Below are positions 21,794 through 36,079 of a stretch of 64,000 bases of DNA, piece after piece. The DNA is from Streptomyces sp. NBC_00461 (GTDB lineage: Bacteria > Actinomycetota > Actinomycetes > Streptomycetales > Streptomycetaceae). Location of the stretch: positions 3,381,001 to 3,445,000 of the forward strand of contig NZ_CP107902.1 in the NCBI RefSeq assembly GCF_036013935.1, read 5' to 3'. Under the pieces are notes generated by a model. That model made no database searches. It was given only the letters and a program-made list of their open reading frames with translations, and was not told the DNA's origin. Position 1 is the stretch's first letter. Every line of letters begins with the position of its first letter. The translations under genes were made by a program, and so were the position numbers.

Positions 21794-22690
21794 ATGTCCG
21801 GCATCGAAATCCAGAAGGTCACCGCGCACATCGGCGCCCGGGTCTTTGGCGTCGAGATCTCCAAGCCCCTGGACGAGGAGACGGTCGTCGCGATCCGCGA
21901 GGCCCTCAACGTCCACAAGGCTCTCGTCTTCGACGACGTGAACCTGGACGACGAGGGCCAGCAGGCCTTCGTCCGCCACCTCGGCGACATCACCACCGCC
22001 CATCCGACGGTGTCGTCCGTGGACGGCGTCCCGAACGTCCTGCCCGTCGACAGCGAGCGGGGCCGCGCCGCCAACAACTGGCACACCGACGTCACGTTCG
22101 TCCTCAACCCGCCGCAGGCCAGCACCCTGCGCAGCATCAAACTCCCGCCGTACGGCGGCGAGACCCTGATCGCCAGTTCCGCGGCCGCCTACCGCCAGCT
22201 GCCCGAATCGCTGCGGCGGCTCGCGGACACGCTGTGGGCCGAGCACACCAACGACTACGACTACGCCGTACCGGACGAGGAGGTCGACGAGCAGCTCGCC
22301 GCCCAGCGGGCCCAGTTCACGTCGATCAAGTACCGCACGGTCCACCCGGTGGTCCGCGTCCACCCGCTCACCGGTGAACGCGGCCTGTTCATCGGCGGGT
22401 TCGCGCAGCGGATCGTGGGCCTGTCGCCGGCCGAGGGACGCAAGATCCTGGACCTGCTCCAGGCGTACGTCACCCGGCCGGAGAACATCCTGCGCCACCG
22501 CTGGTCCGAGAACCAGCTCGTGCTGTTCGACAACCGCATCACCCAGCACTACGCGGTCGACAACTACGACGGTCTGCCGCGCCGTCTGCACCGGGTGACC
22601 GTCGCCGGTGACGTGCCGGCCGGCATCGAGGGCAAGGAGAGCTACTCGATCGAGGGGGACGCCTCGCACTACACGTCCGTAGCCGCGTAG
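21794..22690 (+). CDS. tauD: TauD/AtsK-type Fe(II)/2-oxoglutarate dioxygenase
   Basis: A 298-residue non-haem iron oxygenase that hydroxylates taurine or related sulfonates/alkyl sulfates so that sulfite or sulfate is released. The metal triad is visible as NWHTDVTF (H-x-D at about residues 94 and 96) and the distal His in DNRITQHYAVDNY; the 2-oxoglutarate Arg lies in PRRLHRVTVAG. Length and order fit the TauD family. AAAGGGA precedes the ATG. A strong hairpin follows the gene. It gives the locus a second, oxygen-dependent desulfonation route besides the flavin monooxygenase. Taurine itself is not proven as substrate. Confidence 0.88.
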   Translation: MSGIEIQKVTAHIGARVFGVEISKPLDEETVVAIREALNVHKALVFDDVNLDDEGQQAFVRHLGDITTAHPTVSSVDGVPNVLPVDSERGRAANNWHTDVTFVLNPPQASTLRSIKLPPYGGETLIASSAAAYRQLPESLRRLADTLWAEHTNDYDYAVPDEEVDEQLAAQRAQFTSIKYRTVHPVVRVHPLTGERGLFIGGFAQRIVGLSPAEGRKILDLLQAYVTRPENILRHRWSENQLVLFDNRITQHYAVDNYDGLPRRLHRVTVAGDVPAGIEGKESYSIEGDASHYTSVAA

Positions 22691-24316: not shown

Positions 24317-25093
24317 CTACGGCTTTCGTCCGAGGCCGCCGTGCTGGCCGATCGGCGTGGTCGCCGCACCCGGCTCCGGATGCCACAGCGGGACGGACAC
24401 GATGCCCGGTTCCACCAGTTCCAGCCCGTCGAAGAAGGCCGTGATCTGCTCCACCGGGCGCAGGAAGTACGGCACCGCGCCCGTCTCGTTGTAGGCGTCC
24501 TGGGCCCGCTCGTACTCGGGGTCGGTGCCGCGTGAGCCCTCGTTGAGGGAGAGGTAGCTGCCGGAGGGCAGGCCCGCCAGCAGGCCCCGGACCAGGTCGC
24601 GGGCCTGGTCGTGGTCGGCGACGTGACCGAGGATGCCGCTGAGGATCAGCGCGGTCGGCCGTGTGAGGTCGAGGGTCTTTCCGGCCGCTTCGAGGATGCG
24701 GTCGTGCTCGTACAGGCTCAGGTCCTCGTACGCCGTCACGCCCTCGGGCGTGGAGGTGAGCAGGGCACGCGCGTGGGTGAGGACCAGCGGGTCGTTGTCC
24801 ACGTAGACGATCTTCGCCTCGGGGGCGTGGCGCTGGGCGACCTCGTGGGTGTTGTCGACGGTCGGCAGACCGGTCCCGACGTCCAGGAACTGCCGTACGC
24901 CCGCCTCCGTGACGAGATACCGGATGCTGCGTCCGAGGAAGGCGCGACTGCTGCGGGCGATGGTGACGATGCCGGGGAAGACGGCGGTGTAGGCGTCACC
25001 GGCCGCCTCGTCCACGGGGTAGTTGTCCTTGCCGCCGAGCCAGTAGTTCCAGATCCGGGCCGAGTGCGGCACGGAGGTGTCGATGTCCGTCAT
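24317..25093 (-). CDS. SAM-dependent methyltransferase, Methyltransf_19 (DUF574) family
   Basis: A 258-residue protein of a family expanded in streptomycetes. Typical start VPHSARIWNYWLGGKDNYPVD, SAM-binding FLDVGTGLPT and VYVDNDPLVLTHARALL, and C-terminal FFDGLELVEPGIV. Natural substrates of this family are mostly unknown. It is the last gene of a minus-strand unit after the kinase and the histidine phosphatase (12-base gap), but may belong functionally elsewhere, since members are often solitary. Confidence 0.88.
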   Translation of the reverse strand: MTDIDTSVPHSARIWNYWLGGKDNYPVDEAAGDAYTAVFPGIVTIARSSRAFLGRSIRYLVTEAGVRQFLDVGTGLPTVDNTHEVAQRHAPEAKIVYVDNDPLVLTHARALLTSTPEGVTAYEDLSLYEHDRILEAAGKTLDLTRPTALILSGILGHVADHDQARDLVRGLLAGLPSGSYLSLNEGSRGTDPEYERAQDAYNETGAVPYFLRPVEQITAFFDGLELVEPGIVSVPLWHPEPGAATTPIGQHGGLGRKP

Positions 25094-25105
25094 ACGGTCA
25101 TCCTC

Positions 25106-25726
25106 CTACTCCTCGTCCGGCTCGCACGGCACGTTCAACGAGATCAGCCCAACCGACATGACATCCATACGGAGTTCGGTGACCGCGGCGTTGCGCAGCT
25201 GCGGGAAGACACGGCGGTAGTCGGAGAGCGGGACGGACAGCAGACCGCACAGGACCAGCCGCAGCAGGGTGTTGTGGGCGACGACCAGGACGCGTCCGGC
25301 GTCGTGGGCGGCGGCGATGCGGTGCAGGGCGGCGGCGCCCCGTGCGGCGGCGGCCCTCGGGTCCTCGGCGCCGGGGAACGGGTGGGCCACCGGGTCGGCG
25401 CGGAAGGCCTCCGCCGCCCTCGGGTCCTCGCGCGCGAACTCGGCGAGCGTCCTGCCCTCCATCACCCCGAAGTCGCATTCCCTCAGGTCGGGTTCGCGAT
25501 GCGGGGCGAGGCCGAGGGCGCGGCAGGCGGGGTCGGCGGTGGCGGTCGCCCGGGAGACCGGGGACGTCCAGATCGCGTCGACGGGATGGGCCGCGGCCCA
25601 GCGGCCGAGGGCCTTCGCCTGCGCGCGGCCCGTGTCGGTGAGCGCCACGTCGCTCACCCCCGCGTAACGGTTCTCGGCGTGCCAGACGGTCTGCCCGTGC
25701 CGGGCCAGCAGAAGGGTCGTACTCAT
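25106..25726 (-). CDS. Histidine phosphatase (phosphoglycerate mutase-like)
   Basis: A 206-residue cytoplasmic phosphatase. The phospho-acceptor motif LARHGQT is at residues 7-13, with a partner RxxxTA in SPVSRATATA, the acid ECDFGVMEG and the second His in VLVVAHNTLL. Such enzymes remove phosphate from sugar phosphates, nucleotides or cofactors. Its ATG overlaps the kinase TGA (ATGA), so the kinase and phosphatase are translated together, a surprising pairing unless they act on different intermediates. A much longer upstream frame is only the antisense-phase shadow of the kinase gene. Confidence 0.9.
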   Translation of the reverse strand: MSTTLLLARHGQTVWHAENRYAGVSDVALTDTGRAQAKALGRWAAAHPVDAIWTSPVSRATATADPACRALGLAPHREPDLRECDFGVMEGRTLAEFAREDPRAAEAFRADPVAHPFPGAEDPRAAAARGAAALHRIAAAHDAGRVLVVAHNTLLRLVLCGLLSVPLSDYRRVFPQLRNAAVTELRMDVMSVGLISLNVPCEPDEE

Positions 25727-27162
25727 GAAGGCGAAGTATCCACGGTGAGCCGCCTGTGTGCGTGGGCCGCCACCGTCGGCGAAAGCCAGCCCCGTGCCGT
25801 CAGTTCGTCGACCAGGCGGGAGTACGGCTCGGCGAACAGCGCCGTACGGCCGGGGCGCGGTTCGAGGACCGTGTCGATGCGGACCATGCGTTCGGCGACG
25901 TCCGTCAGGGGGCCCGATCCCGTGCCGTGGGCGGCCAGTGCGGCCATGCCCAGGGCGGGTTCGGTCTGCTTCGGTACGCGGGCCGGGCGGCCGAGGACAT
26001 CGGCGCGCAGCTGGTTCCAGTACGGGCTGCGGGCGCCGCCGCCGGTGAAGGTGAGCGGGCCGTCCAGCGGCGCGCCGAGGTGGTCCAGATAGTCCAGGCA
26101 GAGCCGTTCCGCGAAGGCGACGCCTTGCAGCAGCGCGGCCCACAGGTCGGCGTCGCCGTCCGGCTCGCCCAGGACCAGGGCGGAGGCGTCCGGCGCGAGG
26201 AACGGGAACCGTTCGCCGGACGACACAAGGGGGTAGGCCACCGCGCCCGAGGGTTCGTGGGCTGCCGCCCGCGCGTCCATCGTGGCCGGGTCGGCGCCCG
26301 CGAAGGCGGCGGTCAGCACCCCCGCGCCCACGCTGGACGCCCCGCCGGGCAGCCAACTGCCGTCCGGTGCGCGGTGGTTGTAGACCACGCCGGTGGCGTC
26401 GTGGATGGGGGTGACGGAGGCCCCCTTCAGGACGAGCGTCGTGCCGAGCACCGAGTTCCAGGAGCCGGGGCGCAGCGCCCCGGACGCGATCTGGGCCGCG
26501 CAGCCGTCGGTCATCCCGGCGATCACGGGGGTGCCGGCCGGGATGCCGGTGGCCTCGGCGGCGGCCGGGCAGACCTCGCCGAGGGGGGTGCCGGGGCGGA
26601 CGACGTCGGGCAGGGAGGGCGCGTGGGGGACGGCCGGCCAGGCGTCGCGCTCCACGTCGTACGCCGTCTTGAGGGCGTGGCTGGAATCGGTGGGGACGGG
26701 GTGGCCGACGAGGCGGGCGGTGACGATGTCGGGCTGGTGGGCGATGTGCCCGTGCCCATGGGTGCGCAACAGCCACAGCGCCTTCGGCAGCCCCCAGGTG
26801 TTCTGCACCGTGAGCCCCGCCCCGCGCAGCCGCTCCCCCTCGGCCCACGCCCGCCCGTCGTCGTACATCAGCGCGGGGCTCACGGGCCATCCCGCCGCAT
26901 CCGTCAGCAGCACGGTCCCGGACGTCCCGCACACCGCGAGCCCGCCGACCCGGGCGGGCCGGTCCCTGAGCGCGACCCGGGCCGCCGCGCACACCGCCGT
27001 CCACCACTGCTCCGGATCCTGTTCGTGCCGTACCCCGTCGCGCCGCCCCTCCAACGGGGCCGAACCGGCGCCGAGGACCGTGCCGTCGGCGGTGACGAGC
27101 AGCACGCGGACGCTCTGTGTGCCCAGGTCGATCCCCAGCCACGCGTCACGCTCGTGTCCCAT
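25723..27162 (-). CDS. FGGY-family carbohydrate kinase (xylulokinase-like)
   Basis: A 479-residue two-domain sugar kinase. N-terminal phosphate-1 loop GIDLGTQSVRV, mid-protein GMTDGCAAQIASGAL, then ATP-binding FTGGGARSPYWNQL and adenosine loop near the C-terminus. It resembles xylulokinases but FGGY enzymes also phosphorylate ribulose, erythrulose, glycerol and others, so the substrate is open. The ATG has GGGAGG five bases upstream. It is the first gene of the minus-strand unit and is divergent from the binding-protein gene of a sugar ABC importer; the shared region holds a 12-bp palindrome, suggesting joint control by the DeoR regulator. Confidence 0.9.
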   Translation of the reverse strand: MGHERDAWLGIDLGTQSVRVLLVTADGTVLGAGSAPLEGRRDGVRHEQDPEQWWTAVCAAARVALRDRPARVGGLAVCGTSGTVLLTDAAGWPVSPALMYDDGRAWAEGERLRGAGLTVQNTWGLPKALWLLRTHGHGHIAHQPDIVTARLVGHPVPTDSSHALKTAYDVERDAWPAVPHAPSLPDVVRPGTPLGEVCPAAAEATGIPAGTPVIAGMTDGCAAQIASGALRPGSWNSVLGTTLVLKGASVTPIHDATGVVYNHRAPDGSWLPGGASSVGAGVLTAAFAGADPATMDARAAAHEPSGAVAYPLVSSGERFPFLAPDASALVLGEPDGDADLWAALLQGVAFAERLCLDYLDHLGAPLDGPLTFTGGGARSPYWNQLRADVLGRPARVPKQTEPALGMAALAAHGTGSGPLTDVAERMVRIDTVLEPRPGRTALFAEPYSRLVDELTARGWLSPTVAAHAHRRLTVDTSPS

Positions 27163-27272
27163 CCGGACCTCCCATGGATCGCGACCCGGCATGTGAACTT
27201 CTCACTCTGCACCGATATTTTCGCGTGCGCGAGGGATTGACGGTCATCTTCCGCCGTTACACCCTCTGTTAA

Positions 27273-27284
27273 CGAGTCGACTCG
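27273..27284. promoter_or_regulatory. Palindromic candidate operator of the carbohydrate locus
   Basis: CGAGTCGACTCG is a perfect 12-bp palindrome lying between the divergent kinase and binding-protein genes, 51 bases before the latter. It sits inside a looser inverted repeat running from GTTAAC to GTCAAC (27269-27294). Binding by the DeoR-type regulator encoded at 31.6 kb is the obvious guess. A TTGACG box lies at 27237-27242. Confidence 0.45.
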
Positions 27285-27334
27285 ACGTGTCAACCAAACA
27301 GCGCACCGGGCCCAACCCCACGCGGAGGTCACGG

Positions 27335-28756
27335 ATGGACACGCACGCGCACGACCGCCGACGCTTCCTCGCCCTCACCGCGGGGGCCGCCGCGACCCCG
27401 TTACTCGCGGCCTGCGGCGCGGGCTTCGGCGGGGACGACAACAGGAGCGACGGCTCGGCCGCCGACGACGTCACCGGCTCCTTCGACTGGAAACGGGAGA
27501 AGGGCACGACGGTCAGGGCACTGCTCAACAAGCACCCGTACACGGACGCCCTGATCGCCGACCTGAAGTCCTTCACCGAGAAGACCGGCATCAAGGTCGA
27601 GTACGACGTCTTCCCCGAGGACAACTACTTCGACAAGCTCACCGTCGACCTGTCCAGCGGTCGCGCCTCCTACGACGTGTTCATGCTGGGCGCGTACATG
27701 GTCTGGCAGTACGGGCCGCCGGGCTGGCTGGAGGATCTCGGGCCCTGGATGCGCAACTCCTCGGCCACCGGCGCCGAATGGGACCAGGCCGACTTCTTCC
27801 CCAACCTCCTCCAGGCCGACCAGTGGTCGCTCAGGGCGGGCGCGCCGCTCGGGCAGGGCGGACAGTACGCGCTGCCGTGGGGCTGGGAGACGAACGTCGT
27901 CGCCTACAACACCGAGGTCTTCAAGAAACTCGGGCTGAAACCGGCGGAGACCTTCGACGAGCTGCGCGAGATCTCCGGGGCCATCAAGAGGAAGGCGCCC
28001 GGGGCCGGTTACGACGGCATGTACGGGATCGCCGTGCGCGGGTCCCGCAGCTGGGCCACCATCCACCCCGGCTTCATGACCATGTACGCCCGCAACGGCC
28101 TGCACGACTTCACCGTGAACGGCGGCAAGCTGAAGCCCGCCATGAACACCCCGGAGGCGATCGCCTTCACGCAGGACTGGGCCGGCATGGTCAAGCAGGG
28201 CGGGCCGCCGTCCTGGACCTCGTACACCTGGTACCAGTGCTCCAGCGACCTCGGCGCGAAGAAGGCGGGCATGCTCTTCGACGCCGACACGGCCGCCTAC
28301 TTCCAGGCGGTGAAGGGCGCCTCCCCCGCCTCCGGGAAGATCGCCTTCCACCCGGGGCCGAAGGGACCGGACGGCTCCCTCGCCACCAACATGTGGATCT
28401 GGTCGCTCGGCATGAACGCCAAGTCCAAGAGGAAGAGCGCCGGTTGGCTGTTCCTGCAGTGGGCGACCGGCAAGGAGCACCTGCGCAAGGCCGCCATCAC
28501 CGGCAACCACATCGACCCGGTGCGGAAGTCGGTCAGCCAGGACGCGGCCTACAAGGACAAGATGAAGCACCTGCCGGGCTTCATCGAGACCTTCGAGACG
28601 GTCGTCGACCAGACGAGGATCCAGTTCACCCCGCAGGCCCAGTTCTTCGACGCGACCACCAGCTGGGCCGCGGCCCTCCAGGAGATCTACGGCGGCAAGA
28701 ACGCGAAGTCGGTACTGAACGGCCTGGCGGGCGACCTCGCCTCCAAGGTGGGCTGA
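27335..28756 (+). CDS. Sugar ABC transporter substrate-binding lipoprotein (family 1, CUT1)
   Basis: A 473-residue extracellular solute-binding protein. DRRRFLALTAG is a twin-arginine signal and LLAAC the lipobox (Cys 26). Typical binding-protein segments include YDVFMLGAYM, LPWGWETNVVAYN, GMYGIAVRG and AGWLFLQWATG. Codon 23, inside the signal peptide, is TTA, the rare leucine codon read by the bldA tRNA in streptomycetes; I found no other in-frame TTA in the genes annotated here. Uptake may therefore be tied to development. GGAGGTCACGG precedes the ATG. It heads an eight-gene plus-strand unit. Substrate unknown. Confidence 0.9.
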   Translation: MDTHAHDRRRFLALTAGAAATPLLAACGAGFGGDDNRSDGSAADDVTGSFDWKREKGTTVRALLNKHPYTDALIADLKSFTEKTGIKVEYDVFPEDNYFDKLTVDLSSGRASYDVFMLGAYMVWQYGPPGWLEDLGPWMRNSSATGAEWDQADFFPNLLQADQWSLRAGAPLGQGGQYALPWGWETNVVAYNTEVFKKLGLKPAETFDELREISGAIKRKAPGAGYDGMYGIAVRGSRSWATIHPGFMTMYARNGLHDFTVNGGKLKPAMNTPEAIAFTQDWAGMVKQGGPPSWTSYTWYQCSSDLGAKKAGMLFDADTAAYFQAVKGASPASGKIAFHPGPKGPDGSLATNMWIWSLGMNAKSKRKSAGWLFLQWATGKEHLRKAAITGNHIDPVRKSVSQDAAYKDKMKHLPGFIETFETVVDQTRIQFTPQAQFFDATTSWAAALQEIYGGKNAKSVLNGLAGDLASKVG

Positions 28757-28762
28757 GCGGCG

Positions 28763-29644
28763 ATGGGCTGGCGGCTGACCCTGCGCCCGTACGTCCTCAT
28801 CGTCCCGGCGCTGCTGCTGACCTGCGGGATCCTCTATCCGTTCGGACTCGGGCTCTACTACACGCTGTTCGACTTCTCGGCGAGCAAACCGCAGCCGGAC
28901 ATGGTGCGGTTCGAGAACTACGAGACGGTCTTCACGCAGGACGCCTTCTGGAACTCCGCGTGGGTGACCGTGCTGTACGCCGTCGGAGCCGCCGCGGTCG
29001 AGACCGTGCTCGGTGTCGCCGTCGCCCTGCTGCTGCACCGTTCGTCGATCGTCGGCCGGGTGCTGGAGAAGATCCTCATCCTGCCGCTGATGATCGCCCC
29101 GGTGATCGCCGCGATCATCTGGAAGCTGATGCTCCAGCCGTCGGTGGGGGTGGTGAACCACCTGCTGAAACCCTTCGGGCTGGGGGGAGTCCAGTGGACG
29201 GACACCCCGGCCGGCGCGCTGCTGTCGTCGATCGCCGTGGACGTCTGGGTCTACACCCCGTTCGTGGCGATCCTCGCCCTGGCCGGTCTGCGGTCGCTGC
29301 CCACCTCCCCCTTCGAGGCGGCGGCCGTGGACGGCGCGGGCTGGTGGTACACCTTCCGGCGGCTGACCCTGCCGATGCTGTGGCCGTACGTCCTGGTCGC
29401 GGTGATCTTCCGGTTCATGGACTCGCTGAAGGTCTTCGACATCATCTACGCCCTGACGGAGGGCGGCCCGGGCGACTCGACCGTCGTCCTGCAGATCCGT
29501 GCCTACCTGGAGGCGATCCGCTTCCAGCGCTACAGCTTCGGGATCAGCTACACGATCGTGCTGTGGGCGGTGGTGTACCTGGCCGCGATGGTGCTCGTAC
29601 GCCATCTCGGCACGATCCAGCGGAAGGCGGCCGAGGCGAAATGA
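28763..29644 (+). CDS. Sugar ABC transporter permease (MalF type)
   Basis: A 293-residue inner-membrane protein with six helices. The EAA coupling loop reads EAAAVDGAGWWYTFRRLTLP. The opening YVLIVPALLLTCGILYPFGLGLYYTLFDF is normal for CUT1 permeases (written in part: PALLLT, YPFGLGLYYTLFDF). Six bases separate it from the binding-protein stop. Its end overlaps the second permease (ATGA). Confidence 0.92.
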   Translation: MGWRLTLRPYVLIVPALLLTCGILYPFGLGLYYTLFDFSASKPQPDMVRFENYETVFTQDAFWNSAWVTVLYAVGAAAVETVLGVAVALLLHRSSIVGRVLEKILILPLMIAPVIAAIIWKLMLQPSVGVVNHLLKPFGLGGVQWTDTPAGALLSSIAVDVWVYTPFVAILALAGLRSLPTSPFEAAAVDGAGWWYTFRRLTLPMLWPYVLVAVIFRFMDSLKVFDIIYALTEGGPGDSTVVLQIRAYLEAIRFQRYSFGISYTIVLWAVVYLAAMVLVRHLGTIQRKAAEAK

Positions 29645-30471
29645 CCGTCAGGAAACGCCTGTTGGGATGGCTGGCCGATGTCGCGCTCATCCTCTACTTC
29701 GTCTTCGCCCTGTTCCCGATCGCCTGGATGGTGATCCTGTCCCTGAAGCCCGCGAACCAGCTCTTCAGCACCTACTTCTCCTTCACGCCGACCCTCGACG
29801 GGTACCGGACCGTCCTCGGCGACAGCGAGGGCATCCCGTTCGTGCGGTTCTTCGTCAACAGCCTGGTGGTGTCGGTGGGGGCGGTCGTGCTGTCGCTGGT
29901 GGTCGGGCTGCCGGCGGCGTACGCGTCGGCCCGCTGGCGGTTCAAGGGCTCGGAGAACCTGATGTTCACGCTGCTGTCGTTCCGGTTCGCGCCCGAACTC
30001 ACCGTGATCATCCCGCTGTTCGTGCTCTACCAGAAGCTCGGCCTTTTCGACACGTACGTCGGCATGATCTGGGTCCTGCAGCTCGTCACGCTGCCGCTGA
30101 TCGTGTGGATCATGCGGTCCTACTTCGCCGATCTGACACCGGAGCTGGAGCAGGCGGCCCTGCTGGACGGGTACTCGCGCAAGCAGGCGTTCTTCAAGGT
30201 CGCCCTGCCACTGGTCAAGCCGGGCATCGCGGCGGTGTCGCTGCTGGCCTTCATCTTCGCCTGGAACAACTTCGTCTTCCCGCTGATCCTCACCTCCAGC
30301 GAGGCCCAGACGGTGACGGTGGGCGCCCTGTCCTTCCTCGGCGGCGACCGCCCCAAGTACAACCTCACGGCCGCGGCGGCGCTGGTGTCGGTCGTACCGC
30401 CCCTCCTGTTGGCCCTCACCATCCAGCGGTATCTGGTGCGGGGGCTGTCGTTCGGTGCGGTGAAGTCGTGA
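29641..30471 (+). CDS. Sugar ABC transporter permease (MalG type)
   Basis: A 276-residue partner permease with six helices. The EAA loop is EQAALLDGYSRKQAFFKVAL; FPIAWMVILSLKP near the N-terminus and FAWNNFVFPLIL near the C-terminus are standard for MalG-type subunits. The ATG overlaps the previous stop, and its TGA overlaps the GTG of the first ATPase gene, so the transporter is tightly coupled. Confidence 0.92.
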   Translation: MTVRKRLLGWLADVALILYFVFALFPIAWMVILSLKPANQLFSTYFSFTPTLDGYRTVLGDSEGIPFVRFFVNSLVVSVGAVVLSLVVGLPAAYASARWRFKGSENLMFTLLSFRFAPELTVIIPLFVLYQKLGLFDTYVGMIWVLQLVTLPLIVWIMRSYFADLTPELEQAALLDGYSRKQAFFKVALPLVKPGIAAVSLLAFIFAWNNFVFPLILTSSEAQTVTVGALSFLGGDRPKYNLTAAAALVSVVPPLLLALTIQRYLVRGLSFGAVKS

Positions 30472-31556
30472 TCGGGCTGCGGGGGATCACCAAGGCGTAC
30501 GGCAGGGTCACCGCCCTCGACGGGCTCGAACTGGACGTACGCGAGGGCGAGTTCTTCTGTCTGCTCGGTCCGTCCGGTGCCGGCAAGACGACCACGCTCA
30601 AGACCGTCGCCGGGCTGGAACAGCCCGACTTCGGGACGGTCCTGCTCGACGGCAGGGACATGGCGGGCGTCGAGCCGTACGACCGGGGTGTGGCGATGTG
30701 CTTCGAGAGCTACGCCCTCTACCCGCACCGCTCGGCCTACGACAACCTGGCCTCCCCGCTCCGCTCGCCCCGCCACCGCCTGCCCGCCGCCGAGGCCCGC
30801 GACCGGATCGGCGCCATCGCCGAACTGCTCGGCATCAGCGCCCTGTTGGACCGCCGGGTCGGACAGCTCTCCAACGGCCAGCGGCAGCGCGTCGCGCTCG
30901 GCCGGGTCCTGGTCCGCCCCGCCCGCGCCTTCCTGCTCGACGAGCCCCTCTCCCACCTCGACGCCAAGCTCCGCCAGCAGATGCGGGCCGAGCTGAAGGC
31001 GATCGGAGCGGTCCAGAACACGACCACCCTCTACGTCACCCACGACTCCCTGGAAGCGCTGGCTCTCGGCGACCGGATCGGGGTGATCCGGGACGGGCGG
31101 ATCGTGCAGACGGGGACGCGGGAGGAGATCTGGTACCGGCCGTGCGACACCGAGGTGGCGCGGGCCTTCGGGCGGCCGCGGATCAATCTGCTGCCGGGGA
31201 CGGTGACCGAGGACGGCGGCTTCCGGTCGACGGACGGGAAGGTGGAACTGCCGCTCCGGGTGAAGGCGCAGGCCGGCACGGACGTACTGGTCGGCGTGCG
31301 GCCCCGGGACATCGCGCTGAAGGGCGTCGCCGGCCACGAACTCACCGGCACCGTCTACGTCACCGAGGTGCTCGGCCGTTCGGTGGAGGTGACGGTCCGG
31401 CTCGGCGGGCAGCACGCGTCGCTGGTCGTCCCGCGCGGCGACACGGCCGGGCTGCGTCCCGACGATCCGGTACGGCTGACCGTCCGGCCTGAGAACCTGC
31501 TGCTGTTCGAGGCCGACCGGCCCGGGCGCCCAGGACGACTGATCGGGACACGATGA
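30468..31556 (+). CDS. Sugar ABC transporter ATPase, first of two
   Basis: A 362-residue MalK/UgpC-like subunit: Walker A GPSGAGKT, Walker B FLLDEPLSHLD, H-loop VTHDSLEA and a C-terminal TOBE/OB domain from about 235. Two deviations stand out: the signature is LSNGQRQR instead of LSGGQ, and the Q-loop reads CFESYALYPH with Glu where Gln is usual. The second ATPase gene of this unit carries parallel changes, suggesting a heterodimeric pair as in the rhizobial glycerol importer, which also uses two ATPases. It starts at a GTG overlapping the permease stop and ends overlapping the DeoR gene (ATGA). Confidence 0.9.
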   Translation: MIGLRGITKAYGRVTALDGLELDVREGEFFCLLGPSGAGKTTTLKTVAGLEQPDFGTVLLDGRDMAGVEPYDRGVAMCFESYALYPHRSAYDNLASPLRSPRHRLPAAEARDRIGAIAELLGISALLDRRVGQLSNGQRQRVALGRVLVRPARAFLLDEPLSHLDAKLRQQMRAELKAIGAVQNTTTLYVTHDSLEALALGDRIGVIRDGRIVQTGTREEIWYRPCDTEVARAFGRPRINLLPGTVTEDGGFRSTDGKVELPLRVKAQAGTDVLVGVRPRDIALKGVAGHELTGTVYVTEVLGRSVEVTVRLGGQHASLVVPRGDTAGLRPDDPVRLTVRPENLLLFEADRPGRPGRLIGTR

Positions 31557-32416
31557 GCAGCACCAGCAGCGCGCATCAGCAGGGGCCCGCGGCCCGCCAG
31601 GCCGCCATGGCCGAGCAGGTCCTGGCCGACGGATCGGCGACGGCGGCCGAGCTGGCCGAACGCTTCGGGGTGAGCCTGATGACCATCCACCGGGACCTCG
31701 ACGAGCTCGAACGGCAGGGCATCGTCCGGAAGTTCAGAGGTGGGGTGACCGCCCAGCCGTCCGGGGTCTTCGAGTCGAACGTGCAGTACCGGCTGAAGAC
31801 CATGCGCGCCGAGAAGGCCGCCGTCGCCGAGCACGCGCTGAAGTCGATAGAGCCCGGCATGGCGATCATGCTGGACGACTCCACCTCCACCCTGGAGATA
31901 GCCCGCAGGCTCCGCCTCGGCGACATCACCCCGCTCACGGTCGTCACCAACTTCCTGGAGGCCATCAACCTCCTCTCCGACCAGCGGGGCATCCATCTGA
32001 TGGCCCTGGGCGGGGAATACGACCCGCTGCACTCCTCCTTCCTCGGCGTCTCCTGCGTCGAGGCCGTCCAGTCGCTGCGCGTGGACGTCTGCTTCGCCTC
32101 CACGTCGGCCGTGCACGGGGGCTACGCCTACCACCAGGAGCAGCACATCGTGTCCGTGAAGCGGGCGATGCTCGACTCGGCCGCCCGCAACGTCCTGCTG
32201 ATCGACCACACCAAGCTCGCCCGGGTCGCCCTGCACCGGGTCGTCCCGCTGTCCCGCTTCGACCTGCTCCTCGTGGACGACGGGGCGTCGGCGGAGGCAC
32301 TGCGGGACCTGGACGAGCACAAGGTCCGTTACGAGGTGTGCACCACGACAGCCACCACGGCCTCGACTATCACGACAGCCACAAGGGGCGGCGATGACCG
32401 AGCTGGAGCTACGTGA
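31553..32416 (+). CDS. DeoR/GlpR-family transcriptional regulator
   Basis: A 287-residue repressor-type protein: N-terminal DeoR winged helix (residues about 17-70; TAAELAERFGVSLMTIHRDLDELERQG in parts, with the family's IxRDLxxL pattern) and a C-terminal sugar-phosphate-sensing DeoRC domain (LDDSTSTLEIARRL, VTNFLEAINLL, VLLIDHTKL). Family members are relieved by a phosphorylated sugar, so the inducer is probably a product of one of the two FGGY kinases. It is placed between the two ATPase genes, overlapping both, so it is made together with the transporter it likely controls. Confidence 0.92.
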   Translation: MSSTSSAHQQGPAARQAAMAEQVLADGSATAAELAERFGVSLMTIHRDLDELERQGIVRKFRGGVTAQPSGVFESNVQYRLKTMRAEKAAVAEHALKSIEPGMAIMLDDSTSTLEIARRLRLGDITPLTVVTNFLEAINLLSDQRGIHLMALGGEYDPLHSSFLGVSCVEAVQSLRVDVCFASTSAVHGGYAYHQEQHIVSVKRAMLDSAARNVLLIDHTKLARVALHRVVPLSRFDLLLVDDGASAEALRDLDEHKVRYEVCTTTATTASTITTATRGGDDRAGAT

Positions 32417-33473
32417 TCTGCGCAAGACGTTCCGGTCCCGGGGCCGGCCGTCGGTGGACGCCGTACGCGGCATCGACCTCGCGCTGCACTCCGGGGAGCT
32501 GCTCGGGCTGCTGGGCCCCTCGGGCTGCGGCAAGTCCACGACCCTGCGGATGATCGCCGGCCTGGAGACCGTGACCGGCGGGGACATCCTGGTGGCCGGC
32601 AGGTCCGTGACCGACCGTCCCGCCCAGGCCCGCAACATGGGGGTCGCCTTCGAGAACTACGCGCTGTATCCCCCGCTGACGGTGGCGGAGAACCTGGCCT
32701 TCGGGCTGAAGGCACGCAGGGGGAGCGATCGGAGGGACGTGGCGCGCAAGGTCGCCGAGATCGCCGACCGCGTCGACCTCACCGGCATCCTCGACGCCCG
32801 CCCGGCGGGCCTGTCCAGCGGCCAGAAGCAACGGGTCTCCCTGGCCCGCGCACTCGTCCGCGAACCGGACGTACTGCTCCTCGACGAACCCCTCTCCCAC
32901 CTCGACGCCGCCCAGCGCGACACCACGCGCCGCGAACTCAAGCGCATCCAGCGGGACTTGGGCCATACGACGATCCTTGTCACGCACGACCAGGAGGAGG
33001 CCCTCTCCCTCGCCGACCGGATCGCGGTGATGAAGGACGGCGTCATCCAGCAGCTCGGCACGCCCTACGAGATCTACGACAGCCCCGCCAACGTGTTCGT
33101 CGCGGACTTCGTCGGCGAACCCGCGATCAACCTCCTCCCCGGCATCGCGGATGCGGACGGCCACGCCCGGCTGTCGGCCGCGGTCAGGATCGCGCTGCCT
33201 CTCCCGGTGCCGGCGGGCCGCGAGGTCGTCGTCGGTATCCGCCCCGAGGACCTGCACCTCACCGGCGACGAGGGCCTGCCCGCCCGGGTCGTCGCCCACG
33301 AACCCCTCCTGGAGGCGGGCATCGCCACCCTCGCCCTCGACGGCGTCGAACGCTCCCTCGTCGTCCTCACCGACCCCGAGGTGCGCCTCGCGCACGACGA
33401 GCCCGTACGGGTCACCGCCGACGCGCGCCTCACCCATGTCTTCGACGCCGAGACGGGAGACTCCCTGCGATGA
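32394..33473 (+). CDS. Sugar ABC transporter ATPase, second of two
   Basis: A 359-residue MalK-like ATPase with Walker A GPSGCGKS, Walker B LLLDEPLSHLD, H-loop VTHDQEEA and a C-terminal OB/TOBE region. The signature is LSSGQKQR and the Q-loop AFENYALYP, so like its partner it lacks the second Gly of LSGGQ and has Glu in the Q-loop. It overlaps the regulator gene by 23 bases and its stop overlaps the dehydrogenase ATG (ATGA). Confidence 0.9.
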   Translation: MTELELRDLRKTFRSRGRPSVDAVRGIDLALHSGELLGLLGPSGCGKSTTLRMIAGLETVTGGDILVAGRSVTDRPAQARNMGVAFENYALYPPLTVAENLAFGLKARRGSDRRDVARKVAEIADRVDLTGILDARPAGLSSGQKQRVSLARALVREPDVLLLDEPLSHLDAAQRDTTRRELKRIQRDLGHTTILVTHDQEEALSLADRIAVMKDGVIQQLGTPYEIYDSPANVFVADFVGEPAINLLPGIADADGHARLSAAVRIALPLPVPAGREVVVGIRPEDLHLTGDEGLPARVVAHEPLLEAGIATLALDGVERSLVVLTDPEVRLAHDEPVRVTADARLTHVFDAETGDSLR

Positions 33474-34528
33474 GCGATCCGACGAGTGAGCCGATGAGCG
33501 AACCGGTGAGCGAACCCGTGCGGGTCGTCGCCGCCGGTGACCACTTCATCCTGCCGTCGCTCATCACGGCGGCGATCGGCCGTGAAGCCGCCTGTGACGT
33601 GAGCGAACTGACCCTCGGCTGGCCGCTGGAACCCTTCGGCCCGGTCGCCGAGGTGACGGAGGCCAGCGACGCCGAGGAGGAGCTGATCGATGCGCTCGTC
33701 GGCGCGACCGTGCTGGTCACCCAGATGGGGCCGGTGACGGAACGCGTCCTGGAGGCGTGTCCCGACCTGCGGCTGGTCGTCGTGTGCCGGGGCGGACCGG
33801 TCAACGTCAACCTGGACGCGGCCAAGCGGCACGACGTCCGCGTCTGCTTCGCCCCGGGCCGCAACGCCGCCGCCACCGCCGAGTTCACCGTCGGCCTGCT
33901 CCTGTCGGCCCTGCGCCGCATCCCCCAGGCACACAACCTCCTTGCAGGGCAGGGCAGTTGGGAGGGGGCGACGTACTACACGTACGAGCACAGCGGTCTG
34001 GAGCTGGAGGACCTGCCCGTCGGGCTGGTCGGCTACGGCGCCGTCGGCAGCCGGGTGGCCCGCGCGCTGTGCGCCTTCGGCGCGCAGGTGATGGTGCACG
34101 ACCCCTATGTGCGCGGCGAGATCCACGGTCTGCGGGTCGCCTCGCTGGACGAACTCCTGCGCCACTCCCGGGTGATCACGCTGCACGCCCGGCTCACGCC
34201 GCAGACCTACGGCCTGATCGGCGCCCGCGAACTGGCGCTGCTGCCGCAGGGCGCGGTGGTCGTGAACGCGGCACGCGGCCCGCTGCTCGACGAGGACGCG
34301 CTGTGCGACGCCCTGGAGAGCGGGCAGGTGTCGGCCGCCGCCCTCGACACCTACGTACAGGAGCCGTTGCCGGCGGACTCACGGCTGCGCGCGCTCGCCG
34401 AACGCGTCGTACTGACCCCGCATCTGGGCGGCGCCTCGCGCGCGGTGGCGGAGAAGGCGGCGCGGATCGCCGCGGCGGAGGTGGGGCGCTGGGTGCGCGG
34501 GGAAGCGCTGGCGCACGCTCTGACCTGA
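33470..34528 (+). CDS. D-isomer-specific 2-hydroxyacid dehydrogenase
   Basis: A 352-residue NAD(P)-dependent enzyme. Rossmann loop VGYGAVGSRVARAL (about residue 184), catalytic Arg in VNAARGPLLDEDAL, Glu in YVQEPLP and the His of LTPHLGGAS. Family members interconvert 2-hydroxy and 2-oxo acids (3-phosphoglycerate, glycerate, erythronate-4-phosphate and others). Here it presumably oxidises or reduces an intermediate of the imported sugar. The N-terminus is a repeat of SEP units coded by near-identical 12- to 15-base stretches with several in-frame starts (33470, 33494), so the true start is uncertain. Confidence 0.88.
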   Translation: MSDPTSEPMSEPVSEPVRVVAAGDHFILPSLITAAIGREAACDVSELTLGWPLEPFGPVAEVTEASDAEEELIDALVGATVLVTQMGPVTERVLEACPDLRLVVVCRGGPVNVNLDAAKRHDVRVCFAPGRNAAATAEFTVGLLLSALRRIPQAHNLLAGQGSWEGATYYTYEHSGLELEDLPVGLVGYGAVGSRVARALCAFGAQVMVHDPYVRGEIHGLRVASLDELLRHSRVITLHARLTPQTYGLIGARELALLPQGAVVVNAARGPLLDEDALCDALESGQVSAAALDTYVQEPLPADSRLRALAERVVLTPHLGGASRAVAEKAARIAAAEVGRWVRGEALAHALT

Positions 34529-34565
34529 GTGCCGGGAAGTGTCGTCGTTCGCATGCAGCGCCGTC

Positions 34566-34612
34566 GTGGCCGGTCGCGCCCGCGCGGCCAAGCCGCACAC
34601 CGATACCGCCCG
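34566..34612 (+). repeat. Short direct repeat flanking the second kinase gene, left copy
   Basis: GTGGCCG, CCCGCG, then AGCCGC-ACA-CCGATACCGCCCG occur in the same order as in the copy at 36173-36211; the last 22 bases match at 19 positions. It lies 42 bases before the kinase ATG. Role unknown: shared promoter element or remnant of an insertion. Confidence 0.55.
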
Positions 34613-34654
34613 CGTCCCTCCGGGGCGCTGCCGAACCGCAGAGGAGAGCGCGTC

Positions 34655-36079
34655 ATGTACGTCGGGATCGACGTGGGTACGTCCATGGTGAAGGCCGCCG
34701 CGTTCGACGGCGAGGGACGTGAACTGGCCGTCGAGGCACGCCCGGTGGGGCTCGCGCTGCACGGCGGCGTCGTGGAGCAGGACATGGAGGAGGTGTACGC
34801 GGCTGTCGTCGGCGTGCTGCAGGAGTTGACGGCGCGGGTGCCCGAGCCCGTCGAGCTGGCCGGGCTGACCGGGCAGGGCGACGGGGTCTGGCTGGTCGAC
34901 AAGGAGGGGCGCCCGGTCCGCCCCGCGGCCTCGTGGATGGACGGCCGCGCCCATGAACTGCTCGACCAGTGGCTGGCGGACGGCACCTTCGAGGCGGTGT
35001 TCCGGCGGACCGGGAGCGCCATGTTCCCGGGCTGCCCGGGCCCGCTGCTGGCCTGGTTCGACCGCTACGAACCGCACTCCCTCGATGCCGCGGCCACCGC
35101 CCTGTACTGCAAGGACATGGTCTTCCGGCGGCTGACCGGCGCCCCGGCGACGACGGACGTGTCGGACGCGTCGATGCCGTTCCTCGACCCGCGCACGAGG
35201 ACGTACGACAACCGGGCGGTCGAGCTGCTCGGCCTCACCCACCGCCGCGGTCTGCTCGCGCCCGTCGGCGACCCGATCACGACGGCCGAGGCGCTCGGCG
35301 AGGGCCTGCCGTCGGGCACACGGCTCGCGAACGGCCCGTACGACCTCCCGTCCTGCGCTCTCGGCGCGGGCGTGACGACGCCGGGGGACGGTCTGCTGAT
35401 CGTCGGCACCTGCCTGGCCAGCCTGGTCGCGACGACCGACCTCGACCTGACCGGGGAGCCGGCCGGCCTGTACATCTCCACCGACCGCCCAGGTCACCGG
35501 CTGCGCGCCATGCCCGCGATGGTCGGCACGGCGGCCCTCGACTGGGTGCTGTCGACCACCGGCGTCCACCACGAGGAGGTCGACGCGCTGCTCGCCGGGA
35601 CCCCGCCCGGGGCGAACGGTGTGCGAGTCCTGCCGTACTTCGCCCCGTCGGGTGAGCGCGCTCCCTTCGTGGAGCCGCACCTGCGTGCCGAACTCACCGG
35701 TATCTCCCTGGAGTCGACGAAGGGCGACCTGATCCGCGCCACCTGCGAGGGCATCGGCTTCGCGGCCCGGCACTGCCTGGAGGCCGCCGGCCTCAAGGGC
35801 ACGCTCGCGGTCTGCGGCGGCGGCACCCGCAGCGCCGCGTGGATGCGGCTGCTCGCCGACGTCCTGGGCCGCCCGCTGAGGATCGTCGAGGGTGAAGTGG
35901 GCGCGCGCGGCGCGGTGCTGGCGGCGGCGCAGCGGTACGGGATCGCCCTGGACGCGTCCGCCTGGACCGAGCCGACGGCGGTGGTCGACCCGGACGCGGC
36001 ACGGGCGGCGTACTACGCGGAGGCCTACGAGGACCATCTGGCCCGGCTCACGGCGGCCCGGGGCCGGGCACGCGGGTGA
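34655..36079 (+). CDS. FGGY-family carbohydrate kinase, second of the locus
   Basis: A 474-residue sugar kinase with GIDVGTSMVKAAAFD at the N-terminus, GLTGQGDGVWLVD, the substrate-region WMDGRAHE, and ATP-site VCGGGTRSAAWMRLLADVLG. It is only distantly like the kinase on the opposite strand and probably acts on a different intermediate or isomer. GAGGAGAG precedes the ATG. A 126-base gap separates it from the dehydrogenase gene, and short direct repeats lie on both sides, so it may have joined the cluster separately. Substrate not recognised. Confidence 0.9.
   Translation: MYVGIDVGTSMVKAAAFDGEGRELAVEARPVGLALHGGVVEQDMEEVYAAVVGVLQELTARVPEPVELAGLTGQGDGVWLVDKEGRPVRPAASWMDGRAHELLDQWLADGTFEAVFRRTGSAMFPGCPGPLLAWFDRYEPHSLDAAATALYCKDMVFRRLTGAPATTDVSDASMPFLDPRTRTYDNRAVELLGLTHRRGLLAPVGDPITTAEALGEGLPSGTRLANGPYDLPSCALGAGVTTPGDGLLIVGTCLASLVATTDLDLTGEPAGLYISTDRPGHRLRAMPAMVGTAALDWVLSTTGVHHEEVDALLAGTPPGANGVRVLPYFAPSGERAPFVEPHLRAELTGISLESTKGDLIRATCEGIGFAARHCLEAAGLKGTLAVCGGGTRSAAWMRLLADVLGRPLRIVEGEVGARGAVLAAAQRYGIALDASAWTEPTAVVDPDAARAAYYAEAYEDHLARLTAARGRARG

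What the first reader, a model, noticed from the sequence alone, without database searches (positions are those of the whole stretch)
24317..36079. Unassigned carbohydrate pathway with two FGGY kinases, phosphatase and 2-hydroxyacid dehydrogenase
Two divergent units share a palindrome and combine a dual-ATPase importer, DeoR regulator, two unlike FGGY kinases, a kinase-coupled histidine phosphatase and a dehydrogenase. I know of no characterised pathway with this exact set; a tetritol, pentitol or sugar-acid route is possible. This is the best candidate for an undescribed metabolic system here.
Basis: inference. Interest (0 to 1): 0.7.

Follow-up and report, generated by a model that had tools for sequence, protein, structure and literature searches.

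The report
Sugar-alcohol pathway that moves its phosphate

Summary
In detail: a dual-ATPase importer, DeoR regulator, two FGGY kinases (K1, K2), a kinase-coupled histidine phosphatase, a 2-hydroxyacid-dehydrogenase-family enzyme (DH) and a 12-bp palindrome between the two units. The genes travel together: all 42 of 394 sampled class genomes with K1 also have K2. The pathway is not wholly undescribed. Nine of ten proteins match, one to one, the Sinorhizobium locus for erythritol, adonitol and L-arabitol: MptA-E, EryA (K2), RbtA (DH, named by position), RbtB (K1) and EryR (DeoR). EryB, LalA, RbtC, EryC, TpiB and RpiB were not found near K2; the histidine phosphatase may stand in for RbtC. K2-DH pairs occur with three endings: phosphatase plus K1, HAD phosphatase plus dihydroxyacetone-kinase-like kinase plus RpiB, or class II aldolase. 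My best reading is a phosphate-relocating route: polyol, polyol-1-P (K2), ketose-1-P (DH), ketose (phosphatase), ketose-5-P (K1), probably ribitol to D-ribulose-5-P. K1 carries the D-ribulose-kinase signature. Membership of the polyol-locus family is about 0.9 likely, the exact order of steps about 0.55. No enzyme activity was tested. Verdict: new variant of a known kind.

The parts
25106..25726 (-). Histidine phosphatase (Pase), predicted ketose-1-phosphate phosphatase; may take the place of RbtC
   Evidence: His_Phos_1; overlaps K1 by 4 bases; found with K1, same strand, in 39 of the 41 K2 places that have K1, in 33 of the 39 within 400 bases of it; the other two stretches end before its place
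25723..27162 (-). FGGY kinase K1, RbtB-like, predicted D-ribulokinase
   Evidence: Best solved relatives SePSK/AtXK-1; 36% to S. fredii RbtB; only match of S. fredii RbtB in this genome at E<=1e-10
27273..27284 (.). 12-bp palindrome CGAGTCGACTCG, candidate DeoR operator
27335..28756 (+). Solute-binding protein (MptA-like)
   Evidence: SBP_bac_1; 44% to S. fredii MptA
28763..29644 (+). ABC permease (MptB-like)
   Evidence: 44%
29641..30471 (+). ABC permease (MptC-like)
   Evidence: 50%
30471..31556 (+). ABC ATPase (MptD-like)
   Evidence: 41%
31553..32416 (+). DeoR regulator (EryR-like)
   Evidence: DeoRC; 47% to EryR
32394..33473 (+). ABC ATPase (MptE-like)
   Evidence: 40%
33470..34528 (+). 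2-hydroxyacid-dehydrogenase-family enzyme DH (RbtA-like), predicted polyol-phosphate dehydrogenase
   Evidence: 2-Hacid_dh; 42% to S. fredii RbtA, best match of RbtA in this genome; Arg/Glu/His triad plus Arg107 and Arg131 conserved
34655..36079 (+). FGGY kinase K2 (EryA-like), predicted polyol kinase
   Evidence: FGGY; 36% to S. fredii EryA, best match of EryA in this genome

Best explanation
The cluster is an actinobacterial, trimmed version of the rhizobial Mpt/Ery/Rbt polyol locus. It imports and degrades a short sugar alcohol, most likely the pentitol ribitol (adonitol) and perhaps L-arabitol or erythritol. Proposed route: (1) the five-gene importer takes up the polyol under DeoR control; (2) K2 phosphorylates one end (D-ribitol-1-phosphate); (3) DH oxidises C2 with NAD+ (D-ribulose-1-phosphate); (4) the histidine phosphatase removes the C1 phosphate (D-ribulose); [quoted passage not shown] Shown by comparison: gene set, one-to-one relation to the rhizobial locus, co-inheritance, exchangeable endings, conserved catalytic and specificity residues. 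Inferred: every reaction, their order and the substrate. Probabilities: polyol locus 0.9; steps 2-5 in this order 0.55; ribitol as main substrate 0.45.
For: Nine one-to-one matches of 36-50% to the S. fredii locus. The gene order in S. fredii CCBAU 45436, NGR234 and S. meliloti Ak57 fits the protein list in PMC3599248. S. fredii EryA, RbtB and RbtA find K2, K1 and DH as best match in this genome. In S. meliloti EryA and MptABCDE also serve adonitol and L-arabitol, lalA-rbtABC serve those pentitols but not erythritol, and fucA is dispensable (PMC3599248, sections 3 and 13). K1: specificity residues S, G, D, V agree with SePSK, a D-ribulose kinase (PMC4880283, abstract and passages); the residues essential there (Asp8, Thr11, Asp221) are kept. 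Exchanged endings: of 49 K2 places 41 have K1 and 6 have HAD + DhaK/L-type kinase + RpiB (one has both), 1 has an aldolase, 2 are cut by contig ends. The three genomes with K2 but no K1 are two of the HAD/DhaKL kind and the aldolase one. Loci with the two endings interleave in the K2 and DH trees, so the first two enzymes appear shared while the ending changes.
Against: No activity was tested, and members of DH's family normally act on 2-hydroxy/2-keto acids (general knowledge). EryB, present throughout the published set, was not found near K2 in the window. L087 and L088 carry K1 and phosphatase but also further FGGY kinases and class II aldolases, so other routes are possible. K2 places without DH within 9 kb: 4 of 49; three of those genomes have DH in a second K2 locus, the fourth has it about 10 kb away. 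Of the 80 named loci, L081 and L084 have K1 and DH but no phosphatase where the stretch should show it, L028 and L079 lack DH, L039 lacks K1, and L082 has K2 alone. L109 and L119 have a K2 relative without DH. SePSK Ser12, which contacts a second D-ribulose, is Gln in K1; the paper says that site may be an artefact. The histidine phosphatase has no counterpart in the rhizobial locus. The RpiB of L089 passes a ribose-5-phosphate isomerase model, not the D-erythrulose-4-phosphate one.
Confidence: 0.55

Rival explanations
1. Same polyol locus, but the ketose-1-phosphate is cleaved by an aldolase encoded elsewhere; K1 and the phosphatase only recycle escaped or misphosphorylated ketose (metabolite repair).
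For: K2-DH-class II aldolase triples exist in Alphaproteobacteria (L110, L115, L118, L167, L169), and an aldolase-like gene lies near the pair in Streptomyces L120 and L151. The L118 aldolase matches a ribulose-1-phosphate aldolase model, though below its cut-off and less well than fuculose-phosphate aldolase. L081 and L084 lack the phosphatase.
Against: K1 is in 41 of 49 K2 places and only 1 of 49 shows an aldolase match within 9 kb; fucA is dispensable in S. meliloti while rbtABC serve pentitols (PMC3599248, sections 3 and 13).
Confidence: 0.15
2. A sugar-acid route: DH interconverts a 2-hydroxy and a 2-keto sugar acid, and the two kinases phosphorylate the acid and its product.
For: DH belongs to the 2-hydroxyacid dehydrogenase family with an intact Arg/Glu/His triad.
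Against: DH, K2 and the importer are the counterparts of RbtA, EryA and Mpt of a polyol locus. The same DH occurs beside a D-ribulokinase-like and beside a dihydroxyacetone-kinase-like ending, for which I can name no common acid. Its loop reads RGGPVN where two phosphoglycerate dehydrogenases read GVGLDN.
Confidence: 0.1
3. Two parallel, unlinked kinase activities (for example D-xylulose and D-ribulose) in one regulon for mixed pentoses.
For: Both kinases score best against the xylulokinase model.
Against: That cut-off is missed by far (160 and 195.5 against 380.25 bits); a free-sugar regulon does not explain the coupled phosphatase; all 42 genomes with K1 have K2.
Confidence: 0.12

Closest known systems
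Sinorhizobium meliloti/fredii erythritol-adonitol-L-arabitol locus (mptABCDE-eryA-rbtA-eryB-lalA-rbtBC-eryC-eryR-tpiB-rpiB; Geddes et al., PMC3599248)
   Same: Importer with two ATPases, EryA-, RbtA- and RbtB-like enzymes and a DeoR (EryR) regulator; one-to-one 36-50% identity
   Different: EryB, LalA, RbtC, EryC, TpiB and RpiB not found near K2 in the window; histidine phosphatase instead of the HAD RbtC; two divergent units
SePSK / AtXK-1 D-ribulose-kinase-like FGGY proteins (PMC4880283)
   Same: K1: best solved-structure match, same essential Asp, Thr and Asp, similar GTSG/GTSA motif
   Different: Ser12 position is Gln; K1 is longer; AtXK-1 itself responded little to D-ribulose; K1 activity untested
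Tetritol catabolism with EltD, LerK, LerI and DerI (passages of PMC10733421)
   Same: Ends in a D-erythrulose-4-phosphate isomerase; the sister loci L089, L123, L124, L126, L133 and L140 hold an RpiB-type isomerase that could do the same step
   Different: There the polyol is oxidised before it is phosphorylated; here K2 is predicted to act first

Membership tests
Rhizobial mpt-ery-rbt polyol locus | Five-gene importer MptABCDE | tested here: met
   40-50% one-to-one to all five
Rhizobial mpt-ery-rbt polyol locus | EryA-, RbtA-, RbtB- and EryR-like genes | tested here: met
   (EryR only); the name RbtA rests on gene order, as the paper's figure was not seen
Rhizobial mpt-ery-rbt polyol locus | EryB, ubiquitous in the published set | tested here: not met
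   None found within 9 kb of K2 in the window; the rest of the genome was not searched for it
Rhizobial mpt-ery-rbt polyol locus | LalA, RbtC, EryC, TpiB, RpiB | tested here: not met
   None found within 9 kb of K2 in the window; the rest of the genome was not searched for them
Rhizobial mpt-ery-rbt polyol locus | Growth on erythritol, adonitol or L-arabitol | not testable with these tools
   needs strains
D-ribulose kinase (SePSK type), K1 | Essential residues Asp8, Thr11 and Asp221 | tested here: met
   alignment, read by eye; residues from PMC4880283 passages
D-ribulose kinase (SePSK type), K1 | Second-site contact Ser12 | tested here: not met
   Gln in K1; the paper says this site may be an artefact
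Xylulokinase XylB (TIGR01312) | Curated cut-off 380.25 bits | tested here: not met
   K1 160, K2 195.5
Phosphoglycerate dehydrogenase (TIGR01327), DH | Curated cut-off 454 bits | tested here: not met
   211.7
D-isomer specific 2-hydroxyacid dehydrogenases (Pfam), DH | Both domains and the Arg/Glu/His triad | tested here: met
   triad in 56 of 57 DH proteins, the exception (the L133 protein as extracted) having gaps there; triad positions recalled
alpha-Ribazole phosphatase CobC (TIGR03162), Pase | Curated cut-off 162.9 bits | tested here: not met
   122

The most novel reading that the evidence does not exclude
A bacterial polyol route that relocates the phosphate: C1 phosphorylation, C2 oxidation by a 2-hydroxyacid-dehydrogenase-family enzyme acting on a polyol phosphate, C1 dephosphorylation, then C5 (or C4) phosphorylation. 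It would have exchangeable endings for C5 and C4 polyols across Actinomycetota and Alphaproteobacteria, and would explain what RbtA, RbtB and RbtC do in Sinorhizobium.
Probability: 0.5. Interest if true: 0.65.

Novelty: new variant of a known kind. Interest (0 to 1): 0.52.

Why it matters
If right, it gives specific, testable reactions to four co-inherited genes of widespread bacteria that are annotated only generically, suggests reactions for RbtA, RbtB and RbtC of rhizobia, adds polyol phosphates to the substrates of the 2-hydroxyacid dehydrogenase family, and shows a modular design in which the first two steps stay and the ending is swapped, perhaps by chain length.

Tried and rejected
Rejected: (a) that the GlpD-like gene of G565 (L122) replaces DH. 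A whole-genome check found DH at 45% about 10 kb from K2, just outside the fetched stretch. (b) that K1 or K2 is a plain xylulokinase: cut-offs missed by far. (c) that the methyltransferase 24317-25093 belongs to the pathway: of 56 loci scanned only one (Streptomyces) has it near. (d) that DH has a deleted loop: the aligned loop has no gap, it is only substituted.

Led nowhere: literature searches listed nothing that I recognised on this gene set in Actinomycetota; one search listed only PMC3599248. Titles, starts of abstracts and term counts of an open-access library were seen, so absence from print is not shown. The primary 2012 genetics paper is not held. Regions of other K2 or DH relatives (L097-L103, L105, L106) were set aside after reading their gene lists by eye; L104 has an aldolase-DH-kinase set. 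Protein searches listed only the best 120 hits each, among those with an organism name all Streptomyces. No structure was predicted.

Thresholds were my choice: K2 E<=1e-55, K1 E<=1e-75, DH E<=1e-50. More distant relatives exist below them, including DH-FGGY pairs, mostly beside a class I aldolase-like gene (L092-L095, L104). Neighbour calls used identity floors (K1, DH, Pase 40%; HAD 45%; K2 34%) and 9 kb. One search counted the phosphatase in 36 of the 41 places with K1; a later check found it, whole or cut, in three more (L091, L160, L161), and in L156 and L157 the stretch ends first.
Full report
Observation. The region holds two divergent units. Minus strand: K1 (FGGY kinase, 25723-27162) and a histidine phosphatase (25106-25726) that overlaps it by 4 bases. 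Plus strand: solute-binding protein, two permeases, ATPase, DeoR, second ATPase, DH (2-hydroxyacid dehydrogenase family) and K2 (FGGY kinase, ATG at 34655). A perfect 12-bp palindrome lies at 27273-27284. Of 74 named Streptomyces loci with a usable gap beside K1, it is present in 36 of 47 where the SBP is next, 4 of 10 where DeoR is next, 0 of 16 where DH is next and 0 of 1 where K2 is next. No curated NCBIfam cut-off is met by either kinase, DH or the phosphatase.

Do the genes travel together? A scan of GTDB genomes with K2 kept the best 80 of 146 relatives, all 80 Streptomyces. At 55% identity and 60% coverage, 48 of the 80 have all five importer genes and 32 have none; shorter remnants of an ATPase gene show in L017, L040, L054 and L067. 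Of the 32, 26 keep DH and K1, 25 of them with the phosphatase. L017 keeps a scar in which the start of the SBP gene runs into what looks like the tail of the first ATPase gene (read by eye), so there the importer was lost by deletion. Exceptions: L081 and L084 have K1 but no phosphatase although the stretch reaches its place; L028 and L079 lack DH; L039 lacks K1; L082 has K2 alone, next to the upstream permease gene; L041, L074, L075 and L086 are cut by contig ends. In 394 genomes drawn evenly from the class, K2 (E<=1e-55) occurs in 45 and K1 (E<=1e-75) in 42; all 42 have K2.

Relation to a known system. The Sinorhizobium fredii plasmid locus L113 reads SorC, SBP, two permeases, two ATPases, kinase, 2-hydroxyacid dehydrogenase, GlpD-like, class II aldolase, kinase, HAD hydrolase, TIM-barrel epimerase, DeoR, TpiB, RpiB (regulators, importer and TpiB named by eye). 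Its last gene passes the cut-off of the D-erythrulose-4-phosphate isomerase model (253.6 against 240). NGR234, named in PMC3599248 as carrying the locus on a plasmid, has the same 16 matches in the same order. S. meliloti Ak57 has the same order plus a short aldolase after the dehydrogenase, as expected for fucA1; its mptC- and rbtC-like stretches match in two overlapping pieces, so those copies may be broken. From the order in which PMC3599248 lists the proteins (Methods passage), the dehydrogenase between EryA and EryB is RbtA and the second kinase is RbtB; this is my inference, as the figure was not seen. Window against L113: K1-RbtB 36%, K2-EryA 36%, DH-RbtA 42%, SBP-MptA 44%, permeases 44% and 50%, ATPases 41% and 40%, DeoR-EryR 47%; only the phosphatase has no partner. 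S. fredii EryA, RbtB and RbtA find K2 (212.6 against 69.7 bits for the next), K1 (the only match at E<=1e-10) and DH (236.2 against 154.4) in this genome. PMC3599248 (sections 3, 9 and 13 read, passages elsewhere) states that in S. meliloti MptABCDE and EryA also serve adonitol and L-arabitol, that lalA-rbtABC serve these but not erythritol, and that fucA is dispensable. The 2012 genetics paper itself was not held.

Specificity residues. Of five positions from PMC3245297 (abstract and passages seen; glycerol kinase Arg83, Glu84, Tyr135, Asp245, Phe270), four could be placed with this genome's own glycerol kinases as rulers: K1 S, G, D, V; RbtB S, G, D, T; K2 G, D, D, A; EryA G, D, D, M. SePSK, shown to phosphorylate D-ribulose (PMC4880283, abstract and passages), reads S, G, D, V by the alignment, which I read by eye. 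The Tyr135 position was placed only by motif. Over 48 K1 proteins S, G and D are invariant; over 63 K2 proteins the Glu84 position (Asp) and the Asp245 position are invariant, and 39 read GDGDA, including loci of both endings. In DH the triad plus Arg107 is kept in 56 of 57, one (L133, as extracted) being gapped there, and Arg131 in 57 of 57. RGGPVN stands where the two closest phosphoglycerate dehydrogenases shown read GVGLDN; P, V and N are kept in 56 of 57 and the two G in 54. Neither Arg is at the aligned place in the five solved chains shown, two of which are one protein. That these arginines bind a phosphate is my guess.

Endings. All 49 K2 places (the window and 48 fetched stretches) were scored for neighbours within 9 kb. 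K1 is present in 41. The histidine phosphatase was counted in 36 of these and is present in 39 when the limit is dropped; in the other two the stretch ends before its place. In 33 of the 39 it lies within 400 bases of K1 on the same strand, in six it is on the same strand 0.6-2.3 kb away. Six places have a HAD phosphatase, a DhaK/DhaL-type kinase and an RpiB-type isomerase (L089, L123, L124, L126, L133, L140); L124 has both sets. One has an aldolase match (L151). Two are cut at a contig end (L125, L163). L122 has a HAD and a GlpD-like gene besides phosphatase and K1. DH is present in 45; the other four genomes have DH elsewhere, three in a second K2 locus and one about 10 kb away. In L089 the HAD is nearest to hexitol phosphatase HxpB (below cut-off), and the isomerase passes the ribose-5-phosphate isomerase model TIGR02133 but not the rhizobial D-erythrulose-4-phosphate one (152.8 against 240). 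In FastTree trees of K2 and DH, loci with the HAD/DhaKL/RpiB ending fall in more than one place among loci with the K1 ending; support for the mixed branches was not printed. In Alphaproteobacteria the pair has a fuculose-aldolase-like gene next to it in L110, L115, L118, L167 and L169, not in S. fredii L113 and L168.

Mechanism. A phosphatase coupled to a second kinase, after a first kinase and a dehydrogenase, makes sense if the first phosphate sits on the wrong carbon. With EryA-type phosphorylation at C1 (D-erythritol-1-phosphate; recalled, and echoed only by a database name) and oxidation at C2, erythritol gives D-erythrulose-1-P and ribitol gives D-ribulose-1-P. [quoted passage not shown] The two actinobacterial endings have enzymes of just these kinds. 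An aldolase would be a third exit from the same ketose-1-phosphate. Each reaction is inferred.

Limits. Identities of 36-50% do not fix a substrate. L087 and L088 hold further kinases and aldolases. Phylogenetic dependence was not corrected for in the counts: 34 of the 49 places come from two families. The missing rhizobial genes were sought only near K2, not in the whole genome.

Noticed in passing
window 22064-22158: ARAGORN calls a tRNA-Ser on the minus strand inside the open reading frame 21794-22690 on the plus strand; probably a false positive.
   Followed up: no
L109 10869-13473: A Shinella plasmid has a K2 relative (about 50%) without DH or K1 nearby but beside 2-oxoacid dehydrogenase subunits, lipoyl synthase, GlpD and a class II fructose-bisphosphate aldolase; perhaps a fourth ending.
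   Followed up: no
L116, L117, L170: Rhodobacterales plasmids pair an RbtA-like dehydrogenase with a fuculose-aldolase-like gene, an FGGY kinase, an acetolactate-synthase-like gene and CoA transferases; function unclear.
   Followed up: partly
L092-L095, L104: A distant DH-FGGY kinase pair, mostly next to a class I aldolase-like gene, recurs in other Actinomycetota.
   Followed up: partly
L017: Deletion scar of the importer: SBP start followed by what looks like the tail of the first ATPase gene.
   Followed up: partly
window 24317-25093: Methyltransferase-like gene 12 bases from the phosphatase, kept in many of the named Streptomyces loci but found in only one of 56 loci scanned.
   Followed up: partly
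L167 9327-10180 and 19605-20446: The mptC- and rbtC-like stretches of S. meliloti Ak57 match in two overlapping pieces each and carry no annotated gene in the table shown; possible frame changes or sequencing errors.
   Followed up: no
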